64,000 nucleotides of DNA from Anaeromyxobacter paludicola (GTDB lineage Bacteria; Myxococcota; Myxococcia; Myxococcales; Anaeromyxobacteraceae): assembly GCF_023169965.1 (NCBI RefSeq), contig NZ_AP025592.1, positions 744,001-808,000 of the forward strand, written 5' to 3'. How positions within the stretch are numbered: position 1 is the stretch's first letter; each line of letters begins with the position of its first letter. The notes beneath the pieces are model-generated. The model did no database searches, was not told the DNA's origin, and was given only the letters and a program-made list of their open reading frames with translations. This document shows positions 148 to 62,984 of the stretch, piece by piece. A program made the translations under genes and the position numbers.

Positions 148-154
148 GGGCCCC

Positions 155-3263: not shown

Positions 3264-3429
3264 CTCTCCGTCTCGACGCGCCGCGCCACACTGGCGGTGC
3301 ATCCGGGGCGCTTCTCGGCTCACCTCGAAAGTGGTAGCTTGCCGCCGTCCTCCGGAGGGGGAGGCGCGGCCGGCGAGGCGCTGCATCCACTCGCAACCAC
3401 GGCCGTTTCACGTTTCGGAAAGGACCTGC

Positions 3430-5661: not shown

Positions 5662-5671
5662 GGAGCGCGAC

Positions 5672-7543: not shown

Positions 7544-7563
7544 GCTCACCCCAGGAGAGCGAG

Positions 7564-8370: not shown

Positions 8371-8380
8371 GGAGGACGAC

Positions 8381-9418: not shown

Positions 9419-9434
9419 CGGCGCGGTCCCGGAG

Positions 9435-9869: not shown

Positions 9870-9967
9870 GGCGTGAACTGTAGGCGGGCGGGCGGGCGAC
9901 CGCTACGCGCGTTAGGTTGACCCCGAGCGCCCGCGTCGCGGGCCCAACCCCGGAGGGACACCAAGCC

Positions 9968-10177
9968 ATGCCCGGCACCTACAAGAAGATCGAAGTCGTC
10001 GGAACCTCGCCCAACAGCTTCGCCGAGGCGGTGCGGAACGGGGTGGAGGAGGCCGGCAAGACCCTCCACCACCTCAACTGGTTCGAGGTGGTCGAGGAGC
10101 GCGGGGTGATCAAGGACGGCAAGGTCGCGGAATTCCAGGTGACCATCCGGATCGGCTTCAAGATCGAGGGCCACTGA
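9968..10177 (+). CDS. Dodecin flavin-binding protein
   Basis: 69 aa, ATG 9968 with CCGGAGGG upstream. Matches the dodecin family in length and pattern: YKKIEVVGTSPNSFAEAVRNGVEEA, then LNWFEVVEERGVI with the flavin-stacking tryptophan, and EFQVTIRIGFKIE at the end. Dodecins form 12-subunit shells that store riboflavin, FMN or related compounds. It stands alone, divergent from mscL with about 100 bp between them that must hold both promoters. Confidence 0.93.
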   Translation: MPGTYKKIEVVGTSPNSFAEAVRNGVEEAGKTLHHLNWFEVVEERGVIKDGKVAEFQVTIRIGFKIEGH

Positions 10178-10242
10178 GCGACCCGCGGCGGACCTTCCTC
10201 GGTTCCTCCTTTTCGGTCGGCTCTTTTTCGGCTAGAGCCTAT

Positions 10243-10265
10243 GGGCCCGGACGGGTGCCGGGCCC
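10243..10265 (+). promoter_or_regulatory. Perfect leader hairpin upstream of the uracil permease
   Basis: GGGCCCGG and CCGGGCCC form a perfect 8-bp stem around a 7-nt loop. It ends only a few bases before the AAGGAGA ribosome site of the permease gene. It has no T-run, so it is not a typical terminator. It could mask the ribosome site, stabilise the mRNA or be the end of a pyrimidine-sensing leader; no PyrR-type antiterminator was recognised. Confidence 0.4.
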
Positions 10266-10282
10266 CCGACAAGGAGACGTGA

Positions 10283-11575: not shown

Positions 11576-11602
11576 CGGGCGCCTTCCGGCGGCGGGCGGG
11601 GG

Positions 11603-13737: not shown

Positions 13738-13842
13738 TGGCGGTAGAGCAGGGGAATCGAACCCCCCAACAGCGCCTCTCAGCACCATTCACCGGTTTTG
13801 AAGACCGGGCCCGGCACCAGCCTGGGAAGCCCTACCACCGCC
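13738..13842 (-). tRNA. selC: tRNA-Sec (anticodon TCA)
   Basis: Read on the minus strand: an 8-bp acceptor stem GGCGGTGG/CTACCGCC (one G-U), an anticodon stem-loop CCGGT-CTTCAAA-ACCGG with anticodon TCA at 13799-13801, a long variable arm (about 13760-13785) and a T-arm with GGTTCGATT. An 8-bp acceptor, extended variable arm and UCA anticodon together are diagnostic of selenocysteine tRNA. No CCA is encoded. Its presence means the host decodes some UGA codons as selenocysteine; selA, selB and selD are not in this window. End points are good to a few bases. Confidence 0.9.
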
Positions 13843-50350: not shown

Positions 50351-50378
50351 GAGTCCGATAATATGGATTTACTACCGC
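50351..50378 (+). repeat. attL: hybrid dif site
   Basis: Shares the 19-bp core GAGTCCGATAATATGGATT (50351-50369) with the right end. The right arm here, TTTACTACCGC, departs from the usual XerD arm, so this arm is virus-derived. The left arm is chromosomal. Confidence 0.75.
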
Positions 50379-50421
50379 AAATACGGGCTTGTAGGCAAGC
50401 CCTCCCCTGCTGGACAGCTAC

Positions 50422-50574
50422 GCCGCTGCGAGACGGCATCGCACACCCCAAAAAGCAAGGCCCCTGCTCCGAGCTCGCAGACTCGGTGGAGGGGCCCTGC
50501 AGGCTTCGGAGGACGTGTCCGCGTCCGCCCTCAGCCATGCTTCGGATCTTGTAACCCTGGCCGCTGCGAGACGG
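50422..50574. repeat. 15-bp direct repeat pair at the provirus left end
   Basis: GCCGCTGCGAGACGG occurs at 50422-50436 and exactly again at 50560-50574, flanking the terminator hairpin. Exact repeats this long are unlikely by chance in 300 bp; possible Rep-binding iterons. Confidence 0.6.
50450..50500 (-). terminator. Intrinsic terminator of the viral structural operon
   Basis: On the minus strand a 46-nt hairpin (GCA/TGC, GGCCCCT/AGGGGCC and CCGAG/CTCGG paired segments) is followed at once by TTTTT. It lies 177 bp past the last structural gene and points the right way to end that transcript. Confidence 0.7.
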
Positions 50575-50598
50575 TAGGGGGTGAGGCGGGGCGCTTCT

Positions 50599-50648
50599 TT
50601 CGGGCCGGACAGCCCGAACTCCGCGGACAATATTCGGGCCGCCCGAAT
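50599..50648. promoter_or_regulatory. Two related inverted repeats
   Basis: TTCGGGC and GCCCGAA with a 6-bp gap (50599-50618), then the near-perfect palindrome ATTCGGGCCGCCCGAAT (50632-50648). The same half-site twice suggests binding sites for a dimeric protein or paired cruciforms in the viral 3' region. Confidence 0.5.
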
Positions 50649-50676
50649 TGGTCAAGCTCATTGCCGAGCCCCCTGT

Positions 50677-51072
50677 TCAGAGCGGCCGGTAGGAGGTCGC
50701 GGCGGCCTTGTCCGGCGGCGCGCCGATCGAGAACATCCTGATACCGCCCGTGAACCGGGCGACGTCCTGAGCGATGCCGGTCCCGAAGTCCTTGCCGGTG
50801 GTCGGGCCGGTCGCGGGGGCCGCCGGCGTCTGCGCCGTCTGCATCGGGAGGCGCACGCCGATGTCGGAGCCGCCGTTGGAGGCGATCGCCCCCAGCAGGC
50901 CTGGCGCCGCGCTCGAGGCGACGCCGCCGGCGAGCTCGAGGAGCTGCCCGGCGCCGGAGCTGAGCGCGGAGCTCGTGCTCGAGGTGGCCGCGGCCGGCGC
51001 GGTGCGCTGGGCGGCGCGCTTCTTCCCGAACCACCAGGTCATGCCGACGACGGCGAGCGGAAGGACGAACAC
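50677..51072 (-). CDS. Viral small membrane protein (last structural gene)
   Basis: 131 aa. N-terminal membrane segment MFVLPLAVVGMTWWFGKK, then a basic step (KKRAAQR), an Ala/Ser-rich region and a C-terminal part with RMFSIGAPPDKAAATSYRPL. No family recognised. A one-helix protein of this kind fits an internal-membrane component or lysis/entry protein of the virion. The gene is followed only by untranslated DNA and the terminator. Confidence 0.6.
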   Translation of the reverse strand: MFVLPLAVVGMTWWFGKKRAAQRTAPAAATSSTSSALSSGAGQLLELAGGVASSAAPGLLGAIASNGGSDIGVRLPMQTAQTPAAPATGPTTGKDFGTGIAQDVARFTGGIRMFSIGAPPDKAAATSYRPL

Positions 51073-51081
51073 GGGGGCACC

Positions 51082-51645
51082 TCAGTTCGCGACGAAGAGG
51101 ACGAGGGCGCCGAGCGCCAGGAGGGCCAGGATCGCCGTGCCGGAGACCTGGGGCTGCTCCTGGACGGCGACGGTGGTGGTGGGAGCGTCGGTGGCGCCGG
51201 TGACGATGCCGGCGGCCTTCCCCGCGGCGCTGACGACGCCGCCGAGCTGGGCGGCGGTCTGCAGCGCGCCGCCGATGCCGCCGGCGGCGCCCGCGCCGGC
51301 GCTGGCCACGCCGCCGATGGAGCTCAGCACGCCGGCGGCGCTCACCGTGCCGTCGGCCGCGACGGTGCCGGTGGCGATGACGGGGATCGCCTCCGGCACG
51401 GCGCTGGCGGGCACGAGCGCGGCCTCGGGGATGGCGGCGAGCTCGGGCACGGAGTCGATGGCGGCGATCGCGCCCTCGCCGGCCGCGCCCGCGGCGGCGC
51501 CTCCGGCGAGGGTGCCGACAGCGATCGGCCCGCCGAGCATCACCGCGGTGACGCCGACGACCTTCAGGTAGTCGCCGAAGTCCGCGTAGGTGGGCGAGTC
51601 GAGCTCCGGTCGCATCAGCCCGGCGCCGCCGTCGAGCTTGTTCAT
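51082..51645 (-). CDS. Viral Gly/Ala-rich membrane protein
   Basis: 187 aa. Soluble start, then a hydrophobic Gly/Ala-rich stretch (VVGVTAVMLGGPIAVGTLAGGAAAGAAGEG), more Gly/Ala segments (SSIGGVASAGAGAAGGIGGALQ) and a clear C-terminal helix ILALLALGALVLFV. No family recognised. Composition and position match structural membrane proteins of tailless viruses. Confidence 0.6.
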   Translation of the reverse strand: MNKLDGGAGLMRPELDSPTYADFGDYLKVVGVTAVMLGGPIAVGTLAGGAAAGAAGEGAIAAIDSVPELAAIPEAALVPASAVPEAIPVIATGTVAADGTVSAAGVLSSIGGVASAGAGAAGGIGGALQTAAQLGGVVSAAGKAAGIVTGATDAPTTTVAVQEQPQVSGTAILALLALGALVLFVAN

Positions 51646-51654
51646 GACGAGCTC

Positions 51655-51930
51655 CTAGCCGCGGCCGAGCATGTAGCCGACGAGGAACGGCGTCCCGAGG
51701 ACGACGAGCACGGCGCCGATGAGCGGCAGCGGCGAGTACTCCGCCGGCGGCTCGCCCCAGGGGGACGAGGTCTGGTCGCCGAGCGGGGTCCGCACCGTGA
51801 TCTTGGGCGCGGCGAACCGCATGATGAGGTCGGCCAGCGGGCTCCCGGGCGTGCTGGCCGAGCTCGGGTCCACCACGATGGGCGGGAGGATCCGGCTGTC
51901 GATCTCGAGGGTGAGCAGGCCGTCGGACAT
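51655..51930 (-). CDS. Viral protein with C-terminal membrane helix
   Basis: 91 aa. Soluble N-terminal part (LTLEIDSRILPPIVVDPSS...) and a C-terminal anchor LPLIGAVLVVLGTPFLVGYMLG. Two bases separate it from the next small gene. Possibly a capsid-to-membrane linker, with the soluble part reaching the shell (inference). Confidence 0.6.
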   Translation of the reverse strand: MSDGLLTLEIDSRILPPIVVDPSSASTPGSPLADLIMRFAAPKITVRTPLGDQTSSPWGEPPAEYSPLPLIGAVLVVLGTPFLVGYMLGRG

Positions 51931-51932
51931 GG

Positions 51933-52142
51933 CTACCGCACCTGGTACGGCGGGGTCGTGGTGATCACGTTCTGCGGCTGCGCGCCGGCGGTGCCGCCGG
52001 AGATCACGCCGCCGCCGGCGAGGATGGGGGCGAGGATCGCGGCGGCCTTGTAGGCGAGGGTCCAGGGGGCGGCGAAGGCCAGAACGCCAGAGCAGACGAG
52101 GCCGATGCCGAAGGCGAGCTTCTTGAACAGGTCGGAGTTCAT
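51933..52142 (-). CDS. Viral two-helix membrane protein
   Basis: 69 aa. Two hydrophobic stretches, LAFGIGLVCSGVLAFAAPWTLAY and AAAILAPILAGGGVISGG, then a polar tail. Holin-like in size and layout, which would fit the transglycosylase encoded upstream, but no holin family was recognised. Confidence 0.55.
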   Translation of the reverse strand: MNSDLFKKLAFGIGLVCSGVLAFAAPWTLAYKAAAILAPILAGGGVISGGTAGAQPQNVITTTPPYQVR

Positions 52143-52160
52143 GCGGTGCTCCTTGGGGGA

Positions 52161-52343
52161 CTACGGGTCGGTCATGAGCCGCTCGGCGAGCTGCGCGCCG
52201 GGGCAGGTCTTGCGGTGAAGCTCGAGCTGCTTGCGGACGAGGGAGGCGCGGACCTGCTTGCCGAGGAAGGCGCCCAGGAAGGCGCCAACGAGTGGACCCC
52301 AGCGCGGCGCGGACTCGGAGAGGGCGATGAGGAAGGCCGGCAT
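52161..52343 (-). CDS. Viral 60-aa small protein
   Basis: 60 aa, too short to stand out alone, but supported by an ATGA overlap with the spike gene stop. Hydrophobic N-terminal half (PLVGAFLGAFLG) and a basic C-terminal half (KQVRASLVRKQLELHRKTC). Function unknown. Confidence 0.55.
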   Translation of the reverse strand: MPAFLIALSESAPRWGPLVGAFLGAFLGKQVRASLVRKQLELHRKTCPGAQLAERLMTDP

Positions 52344-54010
52344 CAGTACCCCGCGGAGTTGGTCAGGCCGAGGCTGAGGGCGGTGAGGTCGTAGTCGGCC
52401 TCGTAGTCGGCTCCGGCGGAGAGAGCCCAGTCCGCGGAGCCGTTGGCGGTGCGGGTGTCGCCGCTGCGGACCTGGCCGGCGAAGGTGGGCGCGGTGGTCG
52501 TGCTGTGCGTGTCCTGGCTCGAGGCGGTCACGTAGGCCGAGACCGAGGAGTAGTAGGTGCCGTTCCAGGTCACCGCGAGGGTGTTGGCCGAGAAGGCGTT
52601 GTAGTCGGAGGAGAGGGTGGTGCCAGCGGCGGCCTGGATGGCGTCGCGGCCGCCCGAGAAGATGTTGTTCTTGACGGTGAGCGAGCCCGTGTCGGTCTTG
52701 ATCGCGACGAAGGGGAAGCCCGTCGTGTCCACCCAGACGAAGGTGCAGCGCTGGACGTCCACGGTGCCGTTGGCCCAGACGAGCGCGCCGCTCGCCGTTC
52801 GGGCGATGATCCGAACGCCGCGCATCACCAGCGTGGTCGAGGCGGACGGGTTGACGGCGCGGTTCATCAGCGTGCCGTCGGCGGCGTAGGTGTAGCCGTT
52901 GAGGACGCCGCCGATGATCCACACTTTGTCGGCGCCGGAGGTGATGCCCTGGGTGCAGCGGTACGTCTTGCACCGGAGGTAGAGCACGCGGGCCGCGTTG
53001 ATGCCCGAGAAGCCGCCGGAGAGCCCGATCGCCTCGCAGTCCTCGAAGACCATTCGGGCGTGCTTGTAGGAGCCGCCGGAGGTGTGGAAGTAGAAGCCGA
53101 GCGTGCCGCTGGGGGTGGAGGCGATCGCCTTGCAGCGGCGGTAGACCGCCCCTCCGTCGCCGTAGTCGGAGTACGTGACGAACATCGTCGCGGCGCCGGC
53201 GCTCGCGTAGCCCTCGTTCTTCCAGGCGATGCAGTCCTCGGCCGTGCCGGCGTTCCAGAAATTGTGGACCGTCCCGTCTTCGGCGACGCAGTCGCGCGCC
53301 GTGCCGTAGTTGAGCAGGGAGCCGTTGTTGTGCCCCTGGCGCCGGGTGTGGACGCTGACTTCCGTCCCGCCGATCGCCCCCGAGAGGCCGAAGTTGCGCC
53401 GGCTGATCTCGTAGAGGTGCCCGTCGCTTGGAACGGCCGTGCTCCCCACGGCGTTGACATACACGGTGTCGGTGCCGGTGCCGCTGACCACCGCATAGAA
53501 GCTGCCGGGCGTGGCGTCGCAGTTGGCGATGCTCGTGGCGCGCACGAGGCGGGCGCCGTCCTCCCAGACGCTGATCTTCGTCTTGGCGGAGTCGGCGAGC
53601 GAGCTCGTCCAGGTGACCTGGTAGACGTTGGTGTAGCCGCCGGTCTTGGTGAACCCGGCGTTTGCCGCGACGTCCGCTCCGTCGAGCACCGGGCGGGCTC
53701 CCTGGCCGAAGGCTGCCACGCTGGTGCCGATCGGCAGGCTGGAGAGCTCCTCGCGCCAGTAGCCGCCGCGCGCCAGGTAGACGGTTCCGCCGACGGAGAG
53801 GGGCTTGGCCTTCACCGCGGCGATCGTGGCGAGCGCGGTGGAGGGCTTCAGGCCGTCGTTACTGTCGGAGCCGTTGACCGAGTCCACGTAGAACGCGGTG
53901 GGGGCGTAGAGGGTGAAGACCTTGGGCTGCGACGCGGGCCGGAACTGCGCCAGCGCCAGGCCGGGCAGGAGAACGGCGAGCAGGGGCAGGAAGCGGCGGA
54001 GCGAGTGCAT
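52343..54010 (-). CDS. Secreted beta-helix protein, candidate receptor-binding spike
   Basis: 555 aa from ATG 54010, one base overlapping the previous stop. Signal peptide residues 1-22 (RRFLPLLAVLLPGLALAQ). Then FYVDSVNGSDSNDGLKPSTALATIAAVKA, the standard opening of right-handed beta-helix (pectate-lyase-like) surface proteins, followed by about 16 repetitive rungs such as YRRCKAIASTPSGTLGFYFHTSGGSYKHARMVFEDCEAIG. Beta-helices are common in phage tailspikes that bind or cut polysaccharide. The signal peptide is odd for a virion protein made in the cytoplasm, so it may pass the envelope before assembly or modify the host surface. Confidence 0.65.
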   Translation of the reverse strand: MHSLRRFLPLLAVLLPGLALAQFRPASQPKVFTLYAPTAFYVDSVNGSDSNDGLKPSTALATIAAVKAKPLSVGGTVYLARGGYWREELSSLPIGTSVAAFGQGARPVLDGADVAANAGFTKTGGYTNVYQVTWTSSLADSAKTKISVWEDGARLVRATSIANCDATPGSFYAVVSGTGTDTVYVNAVGSTAVPSDGHLYEISRRNFGLSGAIGGTEVSVHTRRQGHNNGSLLNYGTARDCVAEDGTVHNFWNAGTAEDCIAWKNEGYASAGAATMFVTYSDYGDGGAVYRRCKAIASTPSGTLGFYFHTSGGSYKHARMVFEDCEAIGLSGGFSGINAARVLYLRCKTYRCTQGITSGADKVWIIGGVLNGYTYAADGTLMNRAVNPSASTTLVMRGVRIIARTASGALVWANGTVDVQRCTFVWVDTTGFPFVAIKTDTGSLTVKNNIFSGGRDAIQAAAGTTLSSDYNAFSANTLAVTWNGTYYSSVSAYVTASSQDTHSTTTAPTFAGQVRSGDTRTANGSADWALSAGADYEADYDLTALSLGLTNSAGY

Positions 54011-54897
54011 TACCGGCCCTCCACGTGGATGCCGATTTGGGTCACGCCCGTGCCGGCGCGAGAGGGCAGGGTGAATCCGAGGACGTCGGCGCCGACGGGG
54101 ACGTCGAGATCGAACACGAGGCTGGTTTGGGAGACCGCCAGGTCGGAGGCGCCGCCCGGCACCCAGAGCGACTGCTGCGCCGGGTCGGAGAGGCGGGGGT
54201 CGTCCACGTCGAAGCCGTTGGTGTACGTGACCAGGCCGATGGGGTTCACGTACACCTGGAAGTACGGGAGCAGCTTCCAGAGCCGGATCGTGGCGGCGAG
54301 GTCGGCCGGTCGGAGCATTGCCGCCGGGTCGGCCGCGGCGCCCGAGCTCGGCACGACGGTGACGCGGAGCGATTTCAGGCCGCTCGTGACGACGGCCACC
54401 GGCGGGTTGCCGGCGTTCGGGTCGGCGGCGGTGAGGGTGGCGCAGCCCAGCAGCTCCTGCACGCGGGCGCGGCCGGCGCGCTGCGGGTCGAAGGTCGGCC
54501 GGAAGCCGAGCTCGGTCCCGACGAGGAAGCCGACGTAGCCGAGCTGGGGGCCCGCGGCGTCGCCGAACCGAGCCCAGAGGCCGACGGGGTTCCAGGCCTG
54601 GAAGCTTGAGCAGCCCTGGGGCACCGGGAGCGTCTCGCCGGGGCGGAGCAGCACCGGGTTGCCGGAGCCGTTCGGATCGACGGCCATCACCACGCCGGGC
54701 GTCGTGTACTCGGGGTCGAGGGTGATGGAGTACACCGCGCCGCCGCAGTCCACGCGGACGCCGGGCGCCTGGCGCACGGCCGGAACGGCGGCGGTGCCCC
54801 AGGCGGCGTAGCTCGTCTTCCCTCGCTTGAGGCTGGGGTCGTCGGGCAGGAAGACGCGGCGGAAGGTGGGGGGCGCGTTCTGGCGGATCTCGGGCAT
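54010..54897 (-). CDS. Viral structural protein of unknown class (possible penton/minor capsid)
   Basis: 295 aa, soluble, strongly beta-like: RVDCGGAVYSITLDPEYTTPGVVMAVDPNGSGNPVLLRPGETLPVP and the C-terminal SLVFDLDVPVGADVLGFTLPSRAGTGVTQIGIHVEG. No signal peptide or membrane helix. Lies between transglycosylase and spike. The size and fold type would suit a vertex (penton) jelly-roll protein holding the spike; only structure comparison could show this. Confidence 0.45.
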   Translation of the reverse strand: MPEIRQNAPPTFRRVFLPDDPSLKRGKTSYAAWGTAAVPAVRQAPGVRVDCGGAVYSITLDPEYTTPGVVMAVDPNGSGNPVLLRPGETLPVPQGCSSFQAWNPVGLWARFGDAAGPQLGYVGFLVGTELGFRPTFDPQRAGRARVQELLGCATLTAADPNAGNPPVAVVTSGLKSLRVTVVPSSGAAADPAAMLRPADLAATIRLWKLLPYFQVYVNPIGLVTYTNGFDVDDPRLSDPAQQSLWVPGGASDLAVSQTSLVFDLDVPVGADVLGFTLPSRAGTGVTQIGIHVEGR

Positions 54898-54900
54898 GGC

Positions 54901-55488
54901 TCAGCTCTCGGCGTCCTGGCTGTCGGGGTACATGGCGGCTTCGGTGGCGAGCGCCTTGTCTTGGTAGATGGAGGCCGCCGGCCCGCCGCCGTTGTACCGG
55001 CGGACGGCGTCGTACATGTCGCCGCCGGCGGCGTTGAGCTTTGCGCGCCACACGACGGCCGCGGCGTGGATGCAGAAGCTGAGGTCGGTCGCCATGGCGG
55101 CGTAGGCGGCGCGCTCCTGCGCCGCGGTGGCGCCGGCCGGCGGCGCCCAGAGCTTCAGGTCCTTGGCGGTTCCGCGGCTGACCTGGATCGGGCCGACGGA
55201 GGGGCCGACGGCCGCGTTCATGTCACCGACGGCGACGGGGTTGCCGTGCGACTCCACCCAGATCTGGCTCATGAGGAGCCGGGCGATCTCGACCTGGGTG
55301 GCGGTGTCGTAGTCCCAGAAGACGCGGAGCACTTCGCGGCACACGAGCTCGCGGAAGGGCTCCAGCTCGGGGTGGACGCTCTGGGCGGTGGACTCGTAGA
55401 TGTCCTTCACCTTCTTGCCTCCCCAGAGGATCGCCGCGAGCAGGGCGCCGCCGGCGAGCCACCAGACCCAGCGGTCAGCGCCCTTCAT
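54901..55488 (-). CDS. Membrane-anchored lytic transglycosylase
   Basis: 195 aa. N-terminal helix WVWWLAGGALLAAILWGG, then an SLT (Slt/goose-lysozyme-like) domain with catalytic Glu79 in SQIWVESHGNPVAVGD, VGPIQVSRGTAKDL and the late VRRYNGGG. Role: cuts peptidoglycan during DNA entry or exit. A virion- or membrane-bound transglycosylase occurs in PRD1-like and other membrane viruses. Four bases separate it from the next viral gene downstream. Confidence 0.75.
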   Translation of the reverse strand: MKGADRWVWWLAGGALLAAILWGGKKVKDIYESTAQSVHPELEPFRELVCREVLRVFWDYDTATQVEIARLLMSQIWVESHGNPVAVGDMNAAVGPSVGPIQVSRGTAKDLKLWAPPAGATAAQERAAYAAMATDLSFCIHAAAVVWRAKLNAAGGDMYDAVRRYNGGGPAASIYQDKALATEAAMYPDSQDAES

Positions 55489-55497
55489 CGCCGGCTC

Positions 55498-55596
55498 CTA
55501 CGCCGACTTCTTCATGAAGCCGTAGACGGTGAGGCCGAGGGTGAGCGCGGCCGCCGCGAACACGATCATGCCGCCGTACTTGCCGAAGGGGATCAT
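55498..55596 (-). CDS. Viral 32-aa single-helix protein
   Basis: 32 aa, below the size of most gene callers. GAGTGTCCC precedes ATG 55596. MIVFAAAALTLGLTVYGF is a full-length membrane helix ended by FMKKSA. One-helix miniproteins are abundant in the internal membranes of tailless viruses. No family. Confidence 0.6.
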   Translation of the reverse strand: MIPFGKYGGMIVFAAAALTLGLTVYGFMKKSA

Positions 55597-55618
55597 GGGA
55601 CACTCCTTGACTGCGGGT

Positions 55619-56113
55619 TTAGCCTGCGGAGACGACGCCGGCGCGGACCTTCAGCCCGCTCCGGGTGAGGAGGTAGATGAGCCCGGCCGCGACCACCCCG
55701 AGGATGATGAGGGGCTTCGCGACGCCGAGCGAGGCGGAGCCGAGCACGTCGCCGGCGGTGTCGGCCACGGTCTCGGCGACGTGCCCGACGCCCTGGACGG
55801 CGTCGGTCACGACGGTGCTGAGCGAGGTCGGGAAGCTCGCCAGGAACGCGGCCGCTCGAGCGGAGAGCGTGGCGTCGTTGGCGAGGTCGGCGATCTCGCG
55901 GGCGTTCTGCGCGATTTTCCGGCCGGTCTGCTGCCAGGCCGAGAGCTTCGCGGAGTCCTGCGCCGCCGCGTCGGCGAGCTGCTCCCAGTACAAGGCCGAG
56001 GAGTGCCAGGAGTCCACCATGTCGTGGATCCGCTCGTCGGACTGGTACTGGGGCAGAGCGAACAGACCGTCGTTCACCTGCACCATGGCGGCGATCTGTT
56101 CGCTCTGCGTCAT
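55619..56113 (-). CDS. Viral helical protein with C-terminal membrane anchor
   Basis: 164 aa. Helical soluble body (residues 1-100, YQSDERIHDMVDSWHSSALYWEQLADAAAQDSAKL) and a membrane helix at about 132-150 (ASLGVAKPLIILGVVAAGLIYLL) with a short basic tail. Suggests a tail-anchored structural protein. No family. Confidence 0.6.
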   Translation of the reverse strand: MTQSEQIAAMVQVNDGLFALPQYQSDERIHDMVDSWHSSALYWEQLADAAAQDSAKLSAWQQTGRKIAQNAREIADLANDATLSARAAAFLASFPTSLSTVVTDAVQGVGHVAETVADTAGDVLGSASLGVAKPLIILGVVAAGLIYLLTRSGLKVRAGVVSAG

Positions 56114-56117
56114 GCGC

Positions 56118-56327
56118 TCACTCGTCGGAGGTGAGGTTGCCGATCGCGTTGAGGATGCTCGAGGCGGCGTTGCCGGCGGCCTGGACGGTGCCGGGCACGG
56201 CGCTGAAGGTGCCGCCGAAGAGCGTGGAGCCGGGGGCCGGCAGGAGGGTGGTGGTCGAGGGCTTCAGCAGGAAGTACGCGACCACCACGCCGCCGACGCC
56301 GAGCAGGATGAGCGTGCGCGGCTTCAC
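56118..56327 (-). CDS. Viral small membrane protein next to the capsid gene
   Basis: 69 aa. N-terminal helix LILLGVGGVVVAYFLL then a polar, Gly/Ser-rich stretch ending NLTSDE. It starts 3 bp after the capsid-candidate stop. Possible minor membrane structural protein. Confidence 0.6.
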   Translation of the reverse strand: MKPRTLILLGVGGVVVAYFLLKPSTTTLLPAPGSTLFGGTFSAVPGTVQAAGNAASSILNAIGNLTSDE

Positions 56328-56330
56328 GGG

Positions 56331-57449
56331 CTACCCCTTGTGCTGCAGCGGGAGGTACTGCGCCAGGCGCTGCGAGCTCGAGGTGGAACCGTCGGCCGTC
56401 TTGATGTCGAACGAGCCGGACGGGCGGGGGAAGCCGAGCTGGGCGTTCGCCTGCTGGCGCTGCGCCTCGGTGCGCGGCGGGACCGAGCGCCAGCCGACGC
56501 GGAACGCGGTCTTCGAGCCGGTGACGTCGATCACCAGGTTCTTGTTGACCTGGAGGCAGCGGCTCAGGCCGTAGCGCGGGGGCGGGGTGAGGAGCGGAAT
56601 CCACGGCACGGAGACCGTGTTGGCGGCGCCGTTGCCCACGAGCGGGTCGTCCGGCAGGGCCTCGCCGGCCACGGGCGCGGTGGCGCTGTTCACCTGCAGC
56701 GAGCCGCCTTCGGCGTTGAGCCAGTCGAAGTAGCGGACGAGGTCGGCGAGTCGGACCGGGAGGTTCGAGAGCACCTGGCCGTCGGCGGTGAGCTGCACCG
56801 TCGAGACCTGGGTGTCGTCGATCGAGGAGCCGTCCTCGTTGAAGATGGCGAGGTGCGTGTACAGCCGCGACCCCTCGATCACGATGTGCTGGCCGTTCCA
56901 GTCGAGCTTGCCGATCTCGACGTCGGAGGGGAGCACGAGCGGCGAGGCCGGCTCGTTCACGAGGTAGGTGGTGAGCGTGCCGGTGATGCTGGCGACGTTC
57001 GGGAAGAGGCTCGGCAGGTCGCTGAAGTCGATGCTCAGCGGCTTCTGCGCGAAGAGCTCGGGGCGCATGGCGCTGTCGCCGGGGCTCGCGGCGCGCGGGT
57101 CGGAGAAGGGGATCATGACCGCGACGCGCCGGTTGAAGACGCCGGCGTTCGTGGCGGGCACGTCGGCCGGCTGGGAGAACTGCAGGCCGCGCACGTGGTG
57201 GCTCAGGATCCGGAAGTGCTGCCCGGTCGAGAGGATCTTGTCGCCGAGCTGGATGTTCTTGAAGATGCGGTGCAGCTGCTCGCCGGCGATGGCGACGGCG
57301 GCGCCGCCCTGGGTGATGACCAGGTCGAGGACGGCCATGATGGCCGGGGCGCGAACGCCCTGGGGGGTCTCCTTGAGGGAGACCTGGATCGACCCCGGCA
57401 TCGCCAGGGCCTTCTGCTCGAGCTTGAAGAAGGACTGACCACGGAACAT
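56331..57449 (-). CDS. Candidate major capsid protein
   Basis: 372 aa from ATG 57449. Soluble, long alternating hydrophobic/polar stretches suggesting beta strands: GSIQVSLKETPQGVRAPAIMAVLDLVITQGG near the start and ASITGTLTTYLVNEPASPLVLPSDVEIGKLDWNGQHIVIEGSRLYTHLAIFN in the middle, with Pro/Gly-rich turns. No HK97-type, portal or protease companion. It is the largest soluble protein in the block with ATPase and small membrane proteins, as expected for a major capsid protein; size suits a double jelly-roll (PM2 P2 is about 270 aa, PRD1 P3 about 395). Assignment is by context and composition; structure prediction would test it. Confidence 0.55.
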   Translation of the reverse strand: MFRGQSFFKLEQKALAMPGSIQVSLKETPQGVRAPAIMAVLDLVITQGGAAVAIAGEQLHRIFKNIQLGDKILSTGQHFRILSHHVRGLQFSQPADVPATNAGVFNRRVAVMIPFSDPRAASPGDSAMRPELFAQKPLSIDFSDLPSLFPNVASITGTLTTYLVNEPASPLVLPSDVEIGKLDWNGQHIVIEGSRLYTHLAIFNEDGSSIDDTQVSTVQLTADGQVLSNLPVRLADLVRYFDWLNAEGGSLQVNSATAPVAGEALPDDPLVGNGAANTVSVPWIPLLTPPPRYGLSRCLQVNKNLVIDVTGSKTAFRVGWRSVPPRTEAQRQQANAQLGFPRPSGSFDIKTADGSTSSSQRLAQYLPLQHKG

Positions 57450-57460
57450 GGGGGCGGCTC

Positions 57461-57589
57461 CTAGGCGCTCTTCGACGCGAAGAGGGTGGAGAGGTCGAGC
57501 TTCGACTCGAGGCCGGTCGTCTTCAGGATGACGATCACGGCCACGGTCACGGCGGCACAGGTGGCGAGGGCGGCGATGTTGCGCGGCAT
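57461..57589 (-). CDS. Viral 42-aa single-helix protein
   Basis: 42 aa, too short for common gene callers. ATG 57589, ending 11 bp before the capsid candidate. ALATCAAVTVAVIVIL is a membrane helix followed by a polar tail. It might also recall an inovirus major coat peptide, but the neighbours argue for a membrane structural protein. Confidence 0.55.
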   Translation of the reverse strand: MPRNIAALATCAAVTVAVIVILKTTGLESKLDLSTLFASKSA

Positions 57590-57686
57590 GCGATGGTTCT
57601 CCTGAGTGACAAGGCACTCGAAGTGAATGCCGGCACGCTCGCACCTCAGAACGGGCGCCGCGACTTAGTGGTGAGCAAGCAGGAAG

Positions 57687-57905
57687 TCAGGTTTCAGAGC
57701 CGGCCTGGTGCTCGTTGCCGCAGCGCGGGCAGATGCAGCGCGAGCGGAGGAACGACCAGCGGTCGCGCCAGGAGCGGCGGCGCGCCTCGAGGCGGCACTC
57801 GGCGCTGCAGTAGCGCGGCGGAGCGTTGCGGCGCACCGACCACCGGAACGTGCGGCGGCACTCGGCGCAGCGGAGCGTGCGGCTACGGCCAGGTCGTGAA
57901 TGCAC
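57687..57905 (-). CDS. Viral small zinc-finger protein
   Basis: 72 aa with three cysteine pairs: CAECRR, CSAECR (CxxxC) and CPRCG near the end, and many arginines. The first pair of clusters resembles an FCS/MYM-type finger. Likely binds DNA or RNA. Starts inside the ATPase 3' end (23-bp overlap). Confidence 0.65.
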   Translation of the reverse strand: MHSRPGRSRTLRCAECRRTFRWSVRRNAPPRYCSAECRLEARRRSWRDRWSFLRSRCICPRCGNEHQAGSET

Positions 57906-58461
57906 CGACGGCCCTCGAGCTCAGGAGGCGCTGCGCGGCGAGAGCGCTGGTGGCGTCGGGGAGCCAGCCCTCGCGGTAGACCCGCTCCGCGTCCACGAAG
58001 GAGCGCAGCCGTCCGATGTAGATGCGCTGGGAGAGCGAGACCACGTCCGCCGGCAGGTTCGCCGGCCGGTGGGTGGCGAGGAGGGCATGCACGGCGCAGT
58101 TGTCGCCGGCGGCGTTGGGGATGCCGCCCTCGCCGCGCTTCAGGATCTGCAGCAGCGGGTTCTCGTGCCACTTCCCGGACCTGAAGAGCCCGTCGGCTTC
58201 GTCGTCCACCAGGACGACGTCACCGACGTCGATCGCGAGCTGCGCCACCTCGCGCGGGTCGGCGCCGGGGAACCGGCAGAACCTCGGGATGCTCTCCGCG
58301 GCGCGGAGCTGCGCCACCGTGAACGGCGCGCCATCCCAGTCGCCCGGGCGGTGCTCCACGATGAAGAACGCTCGCACGCCGGCCCGGGAGCCGTAGACGT
58401 GCGAGCGCATCAGCGTGGTTTTGCCGCAGCGCGGCTCGCCGAGGTAGAGCGCGACGCTCAC
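57883..58461 (-). CDS. FtsK/A32-like packaging ATPase
   Basis: 192 aa from GTG 58461 (GTGA overlap). Walker A GEPRCGKT (residues 8-15), Walker B VVLVDDE (82-88), then ATHRPANLP at 129-137, a pattern seen in the Zot/HerA/A32 branch (sensor and arginine-type position). Length and lack of a membrane helix favour a viral genome-packaging ATPase, as PM2 P9 or PRD1 P9, over a filamentous-phage Zot protein, which carries a membrane segment. Sits directly before the capsid block. Confidence 0.7.
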   Translation of the reverse strand: MSVALYLGEPRCGKTTLMRSHVYGSRAGVRAFFIVEHRPGDWDGAPFTVAQLRAAESIPRFCRFPGADPREVAQLAIDVGDVVLVDDEADGLFRSGKWHENPLLQILKRGEGGIPNAAGDNCAVHALLATHRPANLPADVVSLSQRIYIGRLRSFVDAERVYREGWLPDATSALAAQRLLSSRAVGAFTTWP

Positions 58462-59240
58462 GCCGCGATCGCTCCCTGGCTGTGCGGCGCCGGCGAGCTC
58501 GCGGGCGCGGCCTTCGGCTCCGGCGGCTTGTTCTTCTCCGCCTCGAGCATTTTCCAGCAGACGTAGCGGTTCACGCCGATCATCGTCAGGCCGATGGCGA
58601 GCGCGACGGCCGGGTCCATGTTGCCGCCGTACTTGTAGATCGTCTCCTCGAGCGGCGTCCGGATCGAGGTCTTCTCTTCGGCGCTCAGCGGCTGGTGCGG
58701 CGGCAGGCGCGCCGCGGCCACGTCGAGCAGGCCGAACACGAAGTCGGCCTCGCTCCGCACGCTCGCCCGGGCGGCCTCGCGCGCCGCCGGGTCTTCGGGG
58801 AGCTCCCGCCGCGCCGGCGGCGCCTCGCCAGCCTGCGCGGGCGCCGCCGGCGACGTCGCAGCGTCGGGCGGCTTGGGGGCATTCTTCGAGCCGGGCGGGC
58901 GGCCCGGCTTACGCTTCGGCGCCAGCTCCGGAGCCGGCAGGCTCGCCAGTGGGTTCGCCGTCGGGTCCGGCGCTTTCGGGAGTCTCTCGGCCGCCGCCGG
59001 CGGCGTGGTCGCCGTCGTCGGAGGGAGGGGGGTCGACGGGGTCGCCGCCGGCGGGGCCGGAGTCGTTGATCTGGAGCTCGGGGGAGGGGTTTTCCTGGCC
59101 GGCGGAGGCGTCGGCGAGGGTTTCCGGGTGGGCGTCGGGGAGGGCATCGGTGGTGGTCTCCTCGCCGAACAGGAAGTCGGCCAAGGCGGAGGAATTGCGG
59201 TTCTCAGCATCCATTTTGGAACCCCTGGAAAATCAACCAC
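58458..59240 (-). CDS. Viral AT-hook-like protein, 3' frame of a frame-disrupted gene
   Basis: Open frame of 260 aa, but only the last about 175 residues look coded. They contain KRKPGRPPGSKN (AT-hook-like DNA-binding element), an acidic/helical middle and a hydrophobic helix MDPAVALAIGLTMIGVNRYVCW near the end. The first about 85 residues are Pro/Thr-rich translation of another frame. Third-codon GC is high from about 59000 downward. The real start lies in the overlapping frame at 59214; a shift near 58988-59005 would join them into one about 250-aa protein. Confidence 0.55.
   Translation of the reverse strand: MVDFPGVPKWMLRTAIPPPWPTSCSARRPPPMPSPTPTRKPSPTPPPARKTPPPSSRSTTPAPPAATPSTPLPPTTATTPPAAAERLPKAPDPTANPLASLPAPELAPKRKPGRPPGSKNAPKPPDAATSPAAPAQAGEAPPARRELPEDPAAREAARASVRSEADFVFGLLDVAAARLPPHQPLSAEEKTSIRTPLEETIYKYGGNMDPAVALAIGLTMIGVNRYVCWKMLEAEKNKPPEPKAAPASSPAPHSQGAIAA
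58909..59214 (-). CDS. Acidic N-terminal part of the frame-disrupted viral gene
   Basis: 101 aa from ATG 59214 with AGGGG 9 nt upstream, the best start signal here. Residues 1-75 are natural-looking and acidic (MDAENRNSSALADFLFGEE...). After about residue 75 third-codon GC falls, while it rises in the overlapping frame. Likely the 5' part of one gene, joined to the AT-hook part by programmed shift or a sequence error in a GC repeat. First gene of the structural operon. Confidence 0.5.
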   Translation of the reverse strand: MDAENRNSSALADFLFGEETTTDALPDAHPETLADASAGQENPSPELQINDSGPAGGDPVDPPPSDDGDHAAGGGRETPESAGPDGEPTGEPAGSGAGAEA

Positions 59241-59305
59241 TTACAGGCGTGGGATTTTCGTTCCGAGTTTCTTCGCTCGGGAATTTCCCTCACCCACCGG
59301 AAACG
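59215..59305 (-). promoter_or_regulatory. Likely promoter region of the viral structural operon
   Basis: The only gap of over 60 bp within the viral block besides the ends. TTGACG is present on the minus strand near 59303, but the matching -10 is weak. An inverted repeat GGGAA-T-TTCCC (59279-59289) and a short hairpin CCGAG...CTCGG (59263-59280) overlap. Probably where late transcription starts and is controlled. Confidence 0.4.
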
Positions 59306-59557
59306 TCAAACGGGGCGTCCGGAAATGCTGGCGCCGCTGGCATCCACCTCGGCCTGGTCGAGCTCGAGGTCGGCGAGCGCCACCAGCACCGGCACCCCGC
59401 CGCCGCGGAGGCAGCCGAACGAGACCCGCGCCGACGGCACGCCGCCGACGTCGAGCAGCTCCAACACGTACCCGGCGCAGTGCTCGGGGAGCGGCTCGAG
59501 GCCGACCGGCGACCACTCGAGCTCGCGCTGCAGGAGGACCGGATCGCCGACTCTCAC
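59306..59557 (-). CDS. Viral 83-aa protein, last of the early operon
   Basis: 83 aa from GTG 59557, sharing GTGA with the gene before. Soluble, beta-like sequence (VLLQRELEWSPVGLEPLPEHCAGYVLELL...). No family. Translation coupling supports it as a real gene. Confidence 0.6.
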   Translation of the reverse strand: MRVGDPVLLQRELEWSPVGLEPLPEHCAGYVLELLDVGGVPSARVSFGCLRGGGVPVLVALADLELDQAEVDASGASISGRPV

Positions 59558-59853
59558 GGCCGGGACTCGAGCTGCAGCGGGGGCAGGGCAGGGGAGTCGT
59601 TCTCGGACTTTCGGCACGTCGGGCAGAGCTCGAGCCCCTCCCGGCCGAGCTGCAGCGGGAAGCGGTGGTCGCCGCACCCGTCGCAGAGCTGGCGCCGGTA
59701 GCCCGGCCGGCGCGCGCCGCCGCGGAGCTCGTGCTTGCGCTTCAGCGCGCACGGCGCCGAGCCGCAGAACACGCGGGCGCGGCCGCGGCGGTGCCGGCGC
59801 ACGGCGAAGGGCTGGTGGCAGTACGGGCAGCGGTTCAGGGTCTGGGGGGTCAC
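59554..59853 (-). CDS. Viral zinc-finger protein downstream of Rep
   Basis: 99 aa from GTG 59853 (GTGA overlap with Rep). Four cysteine pairs: CPYC (9-12), CGSAPC (30-35), CDGC (57-60), CPTC (77-80), with many arginines, so at least two zinc sites. Likely nucleic-acid binding, an accessory or regulator for replication. Confidence 0.65.
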   Translation of the reverse strand: MTPQTLNRCPYCHQPFAVRRHRRGRARVFCGSAPCALKRKHELRGGARRPGYRRQLCDGCGDHRFPLQLGREGLELCPTCRKSENDSPALPPLQLESRP

Positions 59854-61166
59854 GCTGGCGGCTCCTCGGGTGGACCTGCGGCGGACTGCTGAGCGGCGGC
59901 GAGCCGCTCGTACAGCTCGGCGGCGTCGGCGCCGTCGGCGACGATCGAGTGCTGCGCGCCGCACTTCGGGCAGACCTTCGGCGGCGGCTCGAGGCGCTTG
60001 AAGAAGTCGCCGAACCATTGAATCCACTTCGCGTTCCAGCCCGACCAGCCCGCGAAGACTCGAGCCATGTACGTGGCGTGCTCGAAGATGGCGGCCTCGT
60101 TGTCCCGGGTGTCGAACTGCACCCAGACGTCGGGCGAGCAGCGCTCGCGGTACTCGGCGCCGATGATCTGAGCCCACGCCTCGCGGAGCCTCTCGAGCTC
60201 GCCCTCGGTGAGCATGCCCCGGGGCACGTGGCCGCGGCGCCAGGCCGAGGCGTGGGCGGCGCGCTCCATCCAGAAGACGTTGAAGTGCGGCGAGAACTCG
60301 GTGGGGTCCTCGTCGCCCACCGGGTGCACGACGACGCAGGCCCAGGCGGCGTTGAGCGTCGAGCCGTGCTGCAGGAACTTCCAGAGGTTGCGGCGCACCT
60401 CGCGCACGCGCTCGGGGTCCATGAACTGCGCCCGATGCTCGGGCGGCACGGTCAGGACGGCCCGCTTCACCGACCAGAGGGAGGCGTTGGCGCCGCGAGG
60501 CGAGCGGCTGCGGGCGTCGTCGATGCTGGCCAGGATCTTCTCGGCCATCCGCTCGCCGGAGTCCCGGGAGACCACCGGGGCGCAGTAGACGCAGTCGCGG
60601 CGCTCGCACCCCTTGGTCACCAACTTGATCCCGCACAAGCACTTCACCGCCAGCTGAGTGGTCTCGCAGCGTTGCGCGCTTTTCCGTGCTTTCGAGATAA
60701 GGGAAGCAACGTCGGCGAACGCCTCCGGGTTCCACTTCGGCGCCTTCTGAATGCGCCTCGCCTTCGCTCCAACCTCGCGCCCGCAGTCGGGATCCGAGCA
60801 GTCGGACGCCATACGGTCGGTGACGACCCGCGGGCGCGCCCACCGGGCGAGCCGATTCTCAAGGCGATCGCGCGGTACGGCCCTGGCGCGGCCCAGGAAG
60901 CCCGTGCCGGCGTCGAAGGCGTCACGGGCCGCCCAGGCCGGCTCGAAGCCGCTGGCGAGCTCGGCGGCCTCCGTGGCGCGCGCCACCGCGCGCATCTCCA
61001 TCGCCTCGAGCGTCTCCCGGTGCTCGAGCTCCTCGGCCGCGTAGGCGTTCCAGGCGTAGACCTGGCGCTCCTTCGGGCCGGTGCGCTCCGGCTCCTCCCG
61101 GCGCGGCGCGCGGACGGGCCGCACCGGGAAGAGCGAGCGCTGCGGGGTAGCGGCCTCGGAGATCAC
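59850..61166 (-). CDS. HUH-like rolling-circle replication initiator (Rep)
   Basis: 438 aa. A cysteine-rich zinc region (C176, C178, C187, C192, C195; KCLCG...KGCERRDCVYC) precedes SPHFNVFW at 292-299, a HUH-type metal motif with the second His replaced by Asn, and HATYMARVF near 363-371 offers the nicking Tyr (Y366). A CPKC pair sits at 399-402. The order Zn region, HUH, Tyr resembles IS91/PM2-P12/plasmid Rep proteins of the rolling-circle class (family knowledge). Expected role: nicks one strand to start rolling-circle copying. Coupled by ATGA to the gene before. Confidence 0.65.
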   Translation of the reverse strand: MISEAATPQRSLFPVRPVRAPRREEPERTGPKERQVYAWNAYAAEELEHRETLEAMEMRAVARATEAAELASGFEPAWAARDAFDAGTGFLGRARAVPRDRLENRLARWARPRVVTDRMASDCSDPDCGREVGAKARRIQKAPKWNPEAFADVASLISKARKSAQRCETTQLAVKCLCGIKLVTKGCERRDCVYCAPVVSRDSGERMAEKILASIDDARSRSPRGANASLWSVKRAVLTVPPEHRAQFMDPERVREVRRNLWKFLQHGSTLNAAWACVVVHPVGDEDPTEFSPHFNVFWMERAAHASAWRRGHVPRGMLTEGELERLREAWAQIIGAEYRERCSPDVWVQFDTRDNEAAIFEHATYMARVFAGWSGWNAKWIQWFGDFFKRLEPPPKVCPKCGAQHSIVADGADAAELYERLAAAQQSAAGPPEEPPA

Positions 61167-61366
61167 GGCGCCGGCGGCTCCCGAGTGAGCGTCACGCGGA
61201 GCTGCTCGCCGGCGTGGAACGTGGCGAAGACCGCGTCCCCGGTGTCGTTCACGATCTCGATGAACTCGCAGGCGTACTCGATGACCTGGCGCTCGCCGTT
61301 GAGCAGGTGAACGGTGACGGGCTCTTCCGGCAGGGCGCCGAAGAGAACGAGCAGGGGATTCGTCAC
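61163..61366 (-). CDS. Viral 67-aa early protein
   Basis: 67 aa, soluble, acidic middle (VIEYACEFIEIVNDTGDAVFATFHAGEQLRVTL). No family. ATGA overlaps at both ends link it to the early operon and Rep. Confidence 0.6.
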   Translation of the reverse strand: MTNPLLVLFGALPEEPVTVHLLNGERQVIEYACEFIEIVNDTGDAVFATFHAGEQLRVTLTREPPAP

Positions 61367-61599
61367 CCGACCACCTCTTCCGGCATGCCGAGCAGCTCGC
61401 GCGCCAGCGCGTCGAGGCGAAGCGGCTTGGGGGGAGGGGACCAGCGGCGGACGACGGCGGCGAGCGCGGCCGAGAGCTCGAGCTCGCGCGCCTGACGCTC
61501 GAGCGCGGGCGCCTCGAGCACCGCCCTGTGGGCGAGCTCGAGGCGCCGCACGTCGGCGACGACCAGGTGCCGGACGTGGACCACGTCGGGCGAGCTCAC
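61363..61599 (-). CDS. Viral 78-aa early helical protein
   Basis: 78 aa from GTG 61599, where GTGA overlaps the preceding stop. Helical and Arg/Glu/Leu-rich (VADVRRLELAHRAVLEAPALERQARELELS). No family. A longer open frame upstream has no such coupling, so this start is preferred. Confidence 0.55.
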   Translation of the reverse strand: MSSPDVVHVRHLVVADVRRLELAHRAVLEAPALERQARELELSAALAAVVRRWSPPPKPLRLDALARELLGMPEEVVG

Positions 61600-61916
61600 C
61601 GCGCCCTCGTGCGGGCGGCGGGGTGGTCCGGATGGCGCGCGAAGAACGCGACGTTCATCCGCGCCACCTGCGAGCAGTACGCGCGCCAGGGCTTGATGGT
61701 GAACCAGGGGGCGAGCGCCATCAGGTGCTCCACCTCCTCGTAGCGGTCGCGCGCCTTCTCCACGTCGGCGAACGCAGAGAGGAGCTCGGCCTCGGTTCCC
61801 ACCGCGTATCGAGGCGGCGCCGGCGTCGCGGGCCGGAGCGACCACAGGACGGCAAGGGCCGACGTGATGAAGTAGACGAGGACGGTGGCGGCGGCCGCAG
61901 AGGCGAGCGCGCTCAC
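61596..61916 (-). CDS. Viral early protein with N-terminal membrane helix
   Basis: 106 aa. Helix ASAAAATVLVYFITSALAVLWSL then a helical soluble part (ADVEKARDRYEEVEHLMALAPWF). Overlaps its neighbours by ATGA and GTGA. Function unknown; an odd placement for a membrane protein amid replication genes. Confidence 0.6.
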   Translation of the reverse strand: MSALASAAAATVLVYFITSALAVLWSLRPATPAPPRYAVGTEAELLSAFADVEKARDRYEEVEHLMALAPWFTIKPWRAYCSQVARMNVAFFARHPDHPAARTRAR

Positions 61917-62107
61917 GGCGTCGGCTCCGGGTGATCGCTCCAGGCCACCGCAAAGGCCTTGAGGACGCCGCCGATCCGCTCGGCCTCCTCGGGGGTGAGG
62001 TCGCGCGGGACCGTCAACGAGCTGTCGACGGCCATGTGGCTCGAGGACTCGGCCCGCAGCGGCACCTGGTGGGTGAGCATCACGGGGTACTTCTTCGCGT
62101 CGTTCAT
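61913..62107 (-). CDS. Viral 64-aa early protein
   Basis: 64 aa from ATG 62107, with ATGA overlaps on both sides. Soluble: DSSLTVPRDLTPEEAERIGGVLKAFAVAWSD. No family recognised. Confidence 0.55.
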   Translation of the reverse strand: MNDAKKYPVMLTHQVPLRAESSSHMAVDSSLTVPRDLTPEEAERIGGVLKAFAVAWSDHPEPTP

Positions 62108-62571
62108 CGGACCCCTCCGTTCCTGGGAACTCGCTGGTGTTCCGGAACGAGCGGCTCGAGCTCGTCCGCGGTGGCCTCGTCGCCGGCGAGGACGGCGGCG
62201 AGGTAGGCAGCTCGCACGCCGTCGGCGGCGCTCTGCTCGGTCATCAGGGCGGTGGCCTGGCGCTGCGCCATCGCGTTCTCGCGGACGGCGAAGAGCTCGG
62301 CCGCGAGCGCGTCGAGCGCGAACTGGTGGCGCAGCCTGGCGGCGCGGAGCGCAGCCTCGGCGTCGGCGCGCGCGATGCTGCCGACGAGCTCGGCGCCGGC
62401 GGTCTCGGCCGCGGCGATCGCGTCGGCAAGGGCGAGCTGCACCTCGACGACCTCGGGCGGCTGAGCAGCCACCCGGGCGATGTTCACGGCGGCCGCCTTC
62501 GCGGCGCGCACGTTGTAGGAGGCCCCGGCCGCCTGGGGGGCGGCCGCGACCACGGGGCACGGGGCGCGCAT
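62104..62571 (-). CDS. Viral 155-aa helical early protein
   Basis: 155 aa, ATG 62571 with GGGAGG about 7 nt upstream. Ala-rich helices with coiled-coil character (LALADAIAAAETAGAELVGSIARADAEAALRAARLRHQFALDALAAELFAVRENAMAQRQ). Probably the first intact gene of the early operon. Possibly single-strand DNA-binding or regulatory; no family match. Confidence 0.6.
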   Translation of the reverse strand: MRAPCPVVAAAPQAAGASYNVRAAKAAAVNIARVAAQPPEVVEVQLALADAIAAAETAGAELVGSIARADAEAALRAARLRHQFALDALAAELFAVRENAMAQRQATALMTEQSAADGVRAAYLAAVLAGDEATADELEPLVPEHQRVPRNGGVR

Positions 62572-62903
62572 TTAGCGCCTCCCGTCCGGGAATTGCCGCG
62601 CAATCGGCCGGTGCGCGGCTGGATTGCGCGGAGCAAACGGGCGCGGGACCTGGTGCTCGGGGAGTCTCGCCGCGGCGGCGACGAACGGCAGGGCGCTCGT
62701 GCGGACGGTGGCGCCCACGCTCGAGCCTACAGAGCGGAGCACGCGGCGGCAGCTCGGGCAGGTTACGAGCTCGCCCGGCCGGACGCCGGCCGAACAGGCG
62801 GCGTGCGAGCTCGCGCAGGTGCCGGAGCTGCCAGGTCCCCCGCGGACTGAGGAACTGACAACTCCGGCACCCCCCCGGGACGCGAGATATCGACCCCGCG
62901 CAC
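62572..62903 (-). pseudogene. Frame-disrupted small zinc-ribbon gene at the provirus right end
   Basis: Continuous coding character is visible in three consecutive frames. From GTG 62903 a short frame leads to the seven-base homopolymer at 62870-62876; a second frame then shows CRSCQFLSPRGTWQLRHL; after a GC palindrome near 62773-62796 a third frame gives PGELVTCPSCRRVLRS and runs to TAA 62572, touching the next ATG. Joined, the CxxC and CxxC pairs would form one zinc ribbon of about 100 aa. Either two small indels or sequence errors in GC-rich runs. Also holds an exact 10-bp inverted repeat (62596-62605 and 62622-62631). Confidence 0.4.
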
Positions 62904-62933
62904 TCCCGCCCCCCGACTCGGGATTCCGGCCGG

Positions 62934-62947
62934 GGGGGTTAACCCCC
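62934..62947. repeat. Perfect 14-bp palindrome beside attR
   Basis: GGGGGTTAACCCCC, a perfect palindrome 10 bp inside the right att site. May bind a regulator or recombination factor or be part of the virus circular junction. Confidence 0.6.
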
Positions 62948-62956
62948 TGTGACCGT

Positions 62957-62984
62957 GAGTCCGATAATATGGATTATGTCAACT
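62957..62984 (+). repeat. attR: dif-like site
   Basis: Same 19-bp core as attL, followed by right arm TTATGTCAACT, which matches the proteobacterial XerD arm closely. An 11-6-11 arrangement (left arm GAGTCCGATAA, 6-bp spacer TATGGA) is that of a bacterial dif site. This arm is the chromosomal one; the left arm came from the virus. Confidence 0.75.

What the first reader, a model, noticed from the sequence alone, without database searches (positions are those of the whole stretch)
56331..57449. Unrecognised 372-aa major capsid candidate
It has no motif I know, but the position, solubility, beta-like pattern and size fit a capsid protein. If confirmed, it anchors a new group.
Basis: inference. 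Interest (0 to 1): 0.7.

Follow-up and report, generated by a model that had tools for sequence, protein, structure and literature searches.

The report
Myxobacterial tailless prophage with double-barrel capsid
The protein is very probably the double-barrelled main shell protein of a small tailless virus that sleeps in the chromosome of a Myxococcota bacterium, inserted at the spot where the bacterium separates its replicated chromosomes; it belongs to a known kind of virus but to a branch whose sequences resemble no described one.

Summary
The 372-aa ORF is real, on the minus strand (ATG 57449 to stop 56331; codon-position-3 GC 98%). Three homologues (19-29% identity) occur in other Myxococcota, each with a P-loop ATPase gene just upstream; one sits on a circular 11.5-kb genome, two next to an integrase and a tRNA gene. 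A model built from the four sequences (mean pLDDT 54.6) shows two jelly-roll-like halves; Foldseek's top PDB matches are double-jelly-roll capsid proteins (PR772/PRD1 P3, E 2e-8; PM2 P2, E 1e-6), and the first barrel scores Z 12 against PRD1 P3. Neighbours fit: packaging-type ATPase, small membrane proteins, transglycosylase, beta-helix spike candidate, rolling-circle Rep candidate. The 12,606-bp element (50351-62975) is flanked by a 19-bp direct repeat; the right copy is a complete dif-like site, present once per genome beside the same MerR gene in relatives. No integrase was recognised in it, so it most likely integrates by host XerCD, as reported for NO16 and PhiCjT23 phages. The capsid protein has no detected sequence similarity to known families. 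The second barrel and the virion are predicted, not shown.

The parts
56331..57449 (-). [quoted passage not shown] barrel 1 about residues 1-171, barrel 2 about residues 172-326
57461..57589 (-). 42-aa single-span membrane protein directly upstream of the capsid gene, in the position of PM2 P7
   Evidence: position compared with PM2
57687..57905 (-). 72-aa Cys-rich (zinc-ribbon-like) protein
   Evidence: sequence only
57883..58461 (-). packaging-type P-loop ATPase (192 aa; Walker A GEPRCGKT, Walker B VVLVDDE)
   Evidence: just upstream of the capsid gene in all four elements
58458..58958 (-). C-terminal part (about 166 aa) of the protein upstream of the ATPase, in the position of PM2 ORF h; the ORF runs to 59240
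   Evidence: homology to ORF h not detected
59554..59853 (-). 99-aa Cys-rich zinc-finger-like protein
59850..61166 (-). replication initiator candidate (438 aa), similar to the Rep of Thermococcus plasmid pTN1
   Evidence: no Pfam family
61163..61366 (-). 67-aa ORF, unknown
61596..61916 (-). 106-aa protein with N-terminal membrane span
62104..62571 (-). 155-aa ORF, unknown
56118..56327 (-). 69-aa membrane protein directly downstream of the capsid gene (PM2 P3 position)
55619..56113 (-). 164-aa membrane protein anchored near its C-terminus; similarly built proteins in L004 and L012
54901..55488 (-). lytic transglycosylase-like protein (195 aa)
   Evidence: phrog_2013, E 3e-7; PF01464, below cut-off
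54010..54897 (-). 295-aa conserved protein, vertex or minor capsid candidate; homologue in L004 (E 5e-9)
   Evidence: no similarity to PM2 P1 found
52343..54010 (-). 555-aa beta-helix protein with N-terminal hydrophobic leader; receptor-binding spike candidate
   Evidence: PF13229, below cut-off
50677..52346 (-). five small, mostly hydrophobic or membrane-spanning ORFs (131, 187, 91, 69 and about 61 aa)
50351..50369 (+). left copy of the 19-bp direct repeat GAGTCCGATAATATGGATT (XerC arm plus centre; XerD arm diverged), element end
62957..62984 (+). right copy with complete 28-bp dif-like site GAGTCCGATAATATGGATTATGTCAACT, element end

Best explanation
[quoted passage not shown] The phage lies as a 12.6-kb prophage at the dif-like site of a Myxococcota chromosome. 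Inferred cycle: host XerC/XerD recombine the circular phage genome into dif (no phage integrase recognised); after excision a rolling-circle Rep copies it; capsid trimers assemble as pseudo-hexagonal capsomers over a membrane carrying the small membrane proteins; the ATPase pumps DNA into the shell; a beta-helix spike binds the cell and a virion transglycosylase opens the wall. Shown here: the ORF and its homologues, the ATPase-capsid gene pair in all four elements, the fold match of a modest-confidence model, the repeat boundaries, and the same dif-like site in relatives that lack the element. Inferred: assembly, packaging, excision, the roles of single genes, and dsDNA rather than ssDNA in the virion.
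For: Foldseek vs PDB: the top eight matches are all double-jelly-roll proteins, E 2e-8 to 9e-6, alignments of 368-519 columns. VIA-align Z 12.1-11.4 vs PR772/PRD1 P3 over model 3-172, well above the non-capsid rows at Z 6-7. Predicted viral structures: AMDV5, Gluconobacter phage GC1, STIV, ascovirus capsid proteins. ATPase just upstream of the capsid gene in four of four elements, profile match to PM2 P9 with probability 86%. Gene order parallels PM2: Rep ... h, ATPase P9, small membrane P7, capsid P2, membrane proteins, spike. One relative is a circular 11,542-bp contig, 127-bp exact terminal overlap; relatives carry integrases, two beside tRNA genes. 19-bp direct repeat, 0 expected by chance; dif-like site once per genome in seven relatives, beside the same MerR gene in the five checked. 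XerCD/dif integration is reported for NO16 (PMC9966536) and PhiCjT23-like (PMC9719478) phages.
Against: The model is weak (mean pLDDT 54.6, pTM 0.43) and the angle between the halves is unresolved (full-length rmsd 13-14 A). Barrel 2 alone matches only at Z about 6, the background level. No sequence similarity to any known capsid protein. Only four members are known. The Rep assignment rests on one weak match. No virion, excision or expression evidence.
Confidence: 0.9

Rival explanations
1. It is a filamentous (inovirus-like) prophage: the ATPase is a Zot-type export protein, Rep and dif integration are typical of inoviruses, and the 372-aa protein is an adsorption or accessory protein.
For: Small genome with a Rep candidate, many single-span membrane proteins, a P-loop ATPase and dif integration.
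Against: No Zot Pfam match and no membrane span in the ATPase; a transglycosylase is present; the 372-aa protein's structure matches are double-jelly-roll capsid proteins.
Confidence: 0.03
2. The protein has jelly rolls but is a minor vertex (penton) or spike protein, and another gene, such as the conserved 295-aa protein (54010-54897), is the major capsid protein.
For: The 295-aa protein is also conserved, and only barrel 1 is confidently matched.
Against: Position directly after the ATPase and a P7-like gene is the capsid position in PM2; size and fold match P3/P2 capsid proteins; the 372-aa protein is found in all four elements by homology, the 295-aa protein by BLAST in two only.
Confidence: 0.04
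3. A domesticated or defective element using a jelly-roll protein for something other than a virion.
For: Found as an integrated copy in this genome; no activity evidence.
Against: The main ORFs are intact, a relative is a free circular genome, and the repeats at both ends are exact.
Confidence: 0.03

Closest known systems
Corticovirus PM2 and order Vinavirales (with Vibrio NO16); autolykiviruses
   Same: 10-13 kb genome, Rep, ATPase before a small membrane gene and the capsid gene, membrane proteins after it, fold match (PM2 P2 rank 6), dif integration reported for NO16
   Different: Capsid protein is 372 instead of 269 aa with no significant sequence similarity; PM2 P1 spike and ORF h not detected by sequence; host phylum Myxococcota
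Tectivirus PRD1/PR772
   Same: best fold match of the capsid protein (E 2e-8, Z 12), similar capsid protein length
   Different: no DNA polymerase recognised; the element has a Rep candidate and dif-type ends instead of a linear protein-primed genome
Finnlakeviridae (FLiP, PhiCjT23)
   Same: double-jelly-roll capsid protein, Rep, virion lytic enzyme, dif integration in PhiCjT23-like prophages
   Different: FLiP lacks a packaging ATPase (PMC5894146); no capsid sequence similarity; FLiP capsid structure only Z 6.7
Thermococcus plasmid pTN1 Rep
   Same: C-terminal part of the Rep candidate aligns, 28% identity over 125 aa
   Different: an archaeal plasmid of 3.6 kb with three annotated features and no capsid gene annotated on the stretch read

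Membership tests
[quoted passage not shown]
   VIA-align Z 12 vs PRD1/PR772 P3, Z 9-10.6 vs STIV, over model residues 3-172; model confidence modest
[quoted passage not shown]
   strands predicted at 178-222 and 299-323; Foldseek alignments to P3 and P2 span both halves; barrel 2 alone only Z about 6
[quoted passage not shown]
   four of four elements; PM2 P9 profile match, probability 86%; Pox_A32 hit is weak, E 0.024
[quoted passage not shown]
   needs induced particles
Corticoviridae / Vinavirales | capsid protein homologous to PM2 P2 by sequence profile | tested here: inconclusive
   hhalign probability 11-18%, one short segment
Corticoviridae / Vinavirales | gene order ORF h, ATPase, P7, capsid, membrane proteins | tested here: met
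   by position only; ORF h homology not detected
Corticoviridae / Vinavirales | P1-type spike with penton domain | tested here: inconclusive
   295-aa protein vs P1 gave no match
Finnlakeviridae | no packaging ATPase; FLiP-type capsid protein | tested here: not met
   ATPase present; hhalign with FLiP capsid protein probability 0.6%
Inoviridae | Zot/pI morphogenesis protein | tested here: not met
   ATPase has no Zot Pfam match and no membrane span
XerCD/dif-integrating phages | direct repeats at both ends matching the host dif site, no own integrase | tested here: met
   19-bp exact repeat, right end a 28-bp dif-like site; same site in relatives beside MerR; no integrase in Pfam scans of the main ORFs

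The most novel reading that the evidence does not exclude
The four elements are the first members of a separate family- or order-level lineage of tailless double-jelly-roll phages of Myxococcota, with an ATPase, an archaeal-plasmid-like Rep and, in this member, XerCD-dif integration in place of the integrase its relatives carry; [quoted passage not shown]
Probability: 0.6. Interest if true: 0.62.

Novelty: new member of a known kind. Interest (0 to 1): 0.5.

Why it matters
Double-jelly-roll phages escape sequence searches because their capsid proteins diverge beyond recognition. This case places a previously unseen branch in the Myxococcota (no such prophage was found in the paper library), gives a four-sequence seed profile for finding more, and adds a host phylum and an integration switch (integrase/tRNA versus XerCD/dif) within one small group.

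Tried and rejected
Single-sequence structure model: too poor (pLDDT 40.8), replaced by the four-sequence one. Relatives in IMG/VR by capsid protein and ATPase: none. Phage records by capsid protein and Rep: none; plasmid records by capsid protein: only a chance-level match. Internal repeat between the two barrels by profile comparison: not detectable. Weak phylum-wide matches at E 0.01-1 are short and were treated as chance. Inovirus and FLiP membership rejected (see membership tests). GC-skew sampling to place the terminus was noisy; a sign change near 0.9-1.1 Mb is only compatible with dif at 0.807 Mb. The Rep of the window and the Rep_1 protein of L012 could not be shown to be related.

Full report
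Observation. The 372-aa ORF is on the minus strand, ATG at 57449, stop ending at 56331. Its codon-position GC (65/46/98%) is that of a coding gene, while the overlapping 595-aa plus-strand ORF is not. Pfam, PHROGs, NCBIfam and PDB sequences give no hit.

Relatives. Searching 195 genomes of the phylum found three homologues: two in the same family (E 7e-32 and 4e-17) and one in another family (E 1e-25). Two of these records are titled Myxococcales MAGs, hence Myxococcota for the window's phylum. Whole-protein identity to the window protein is 29, 25 and 19%. In every case a P-loop ATPase gene lies just upstream of the capsid candidate. One relative (L004) is a contig with a 127-bp exact terminal overlap, so a circular genome of 11,542 bp. 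All three relatives carry a tyrosine integrase, and in two the integrase is next to a tRNA gene. No relatives were found in IMG/VR or in phage records; one plasmid match was at chance level.

Fold. A four-sequence model has mean pLDDT 54.6 and two halves with jelly-roll-like strand series. Foldseek against the PDB ranks PR772 and PRD1 P3, an iridovirus capsid, PM2 P2, PBCV-1, Sputnik and poxvirus D13 first, all double-jelly-roll proteins, E 2e-8 to 3e-5; against predicted viral structures AMDV5, phage GC1, STIV and ascovirus capsid proteins are among the best. VIA-align gives Z 12 for residues 3-172 against PRD1-type P3. The second half alone reaches only Z about 6 with polyomavirus VP1, so the second barrel is supported mainly by the full-length alignments. 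Sequence profiles do not connect the family to PM2 or FLiP capsid proteins, apart from one short segment shared with PM2 P2.

Neighbourhood. The main genes from 62571 down to 50677 run on the minus strand with coding-type GC3. The order is: three small ORFs, Rep candidate, Cys-rich protein, a Pro-rich protein in the ORF-h position, ATPase, Cys-rich 72-aa ORF, 42-aa membrane protein, capsid protein, 69-aa and 164-aa membrane proteins, transglycosylase, 295-aa conserved protein, 555-aa beta-helix protein, and five small, mostly membrane proteins. PM2 has Rep, P13, P14, h, P9 ATPase, P7, P2 capsid, P3, P4, P8, j, P1 spike, P5, P6; that P9 is the packaging ATPase is from PMC5894146 and PMC9502842 and established knowledge. 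The ATPase profile matches PM2 P9 with probability 86%. The Rep candidate matches the Rep of the Thermococcus plasmid pTN1 (plasmid search E 8e-3; 28% over 125 aa). The relative L012 has a Rep_1 family protein.

Boundaries. A 19-bp exact repeat, GAGTCCGATAATATGGATT, occurs at 50351 and 62957, 12,606 bp apart, with none expected by chance for its 18-bp core. The right copy continues into a dif-like XerD arm (TTATGTCAACT); the left copy's arm is diverged. The full site, with up to three mismatches, occurs once per genome in seven of the related genomes and in this one, with no control hits. In the five checked it lies within about a kilobase of an orthologue of the MerR gene that flanks the element on the right. 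So the element occupies a conserved dif-like site. XerCD integration at dif is reported for the tailless Vibrio phage NO16 (PMC9966536) and for PhiCjT23-like Flavobacterium prophages (PMC9719478).

Interpretation. The simplest account is a temperate tailless phage with a double-jelly-roll capsid. The packaging ATPase favours packaging of dsDNA, since FLiP with ssDNA lacks one (PMC5894146); this is inference. The mechanism is of a known kind; what is new is the lineage and the host phylum. In the paper library no paper links Myxococcota with double-jelly-roll prophages (the one relevant catalogue paper names other phyla), but the library is partial.

Noticed in passing
L004 (G010:C31, JAJZQX010000030.1) 1-11669: Contig ends overlap exactly by 127 bp, so it is probably a complete circular 11,542-bp phage genome with its own integrase.
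   Followed up: partly
L012 15417-16665 and L005 5219-6757: Integrase genes next to tRNA-Glu and tRNA-Leu: relatives seem to integrate at tRNA genes while the window element uses a dif-like site, an integration switch within one small group.
   Followed up: partly
window 52343-54010 (-): Beta-helix protein with an N-terminal signal-peptide-like leader inside the structural gene block; unusual for a phage spike.
   Followed up: no
window 59850-61166 (-): Replication protein candidate of a bacterial prophage whose only database match is the Rep of an archaeal plasmid (Thermococcus pTN1).
   Followed up: partly
window 13738-13836 (-): Selenocysteine tRNA gene predicted, far from the element.
   Followed up: no
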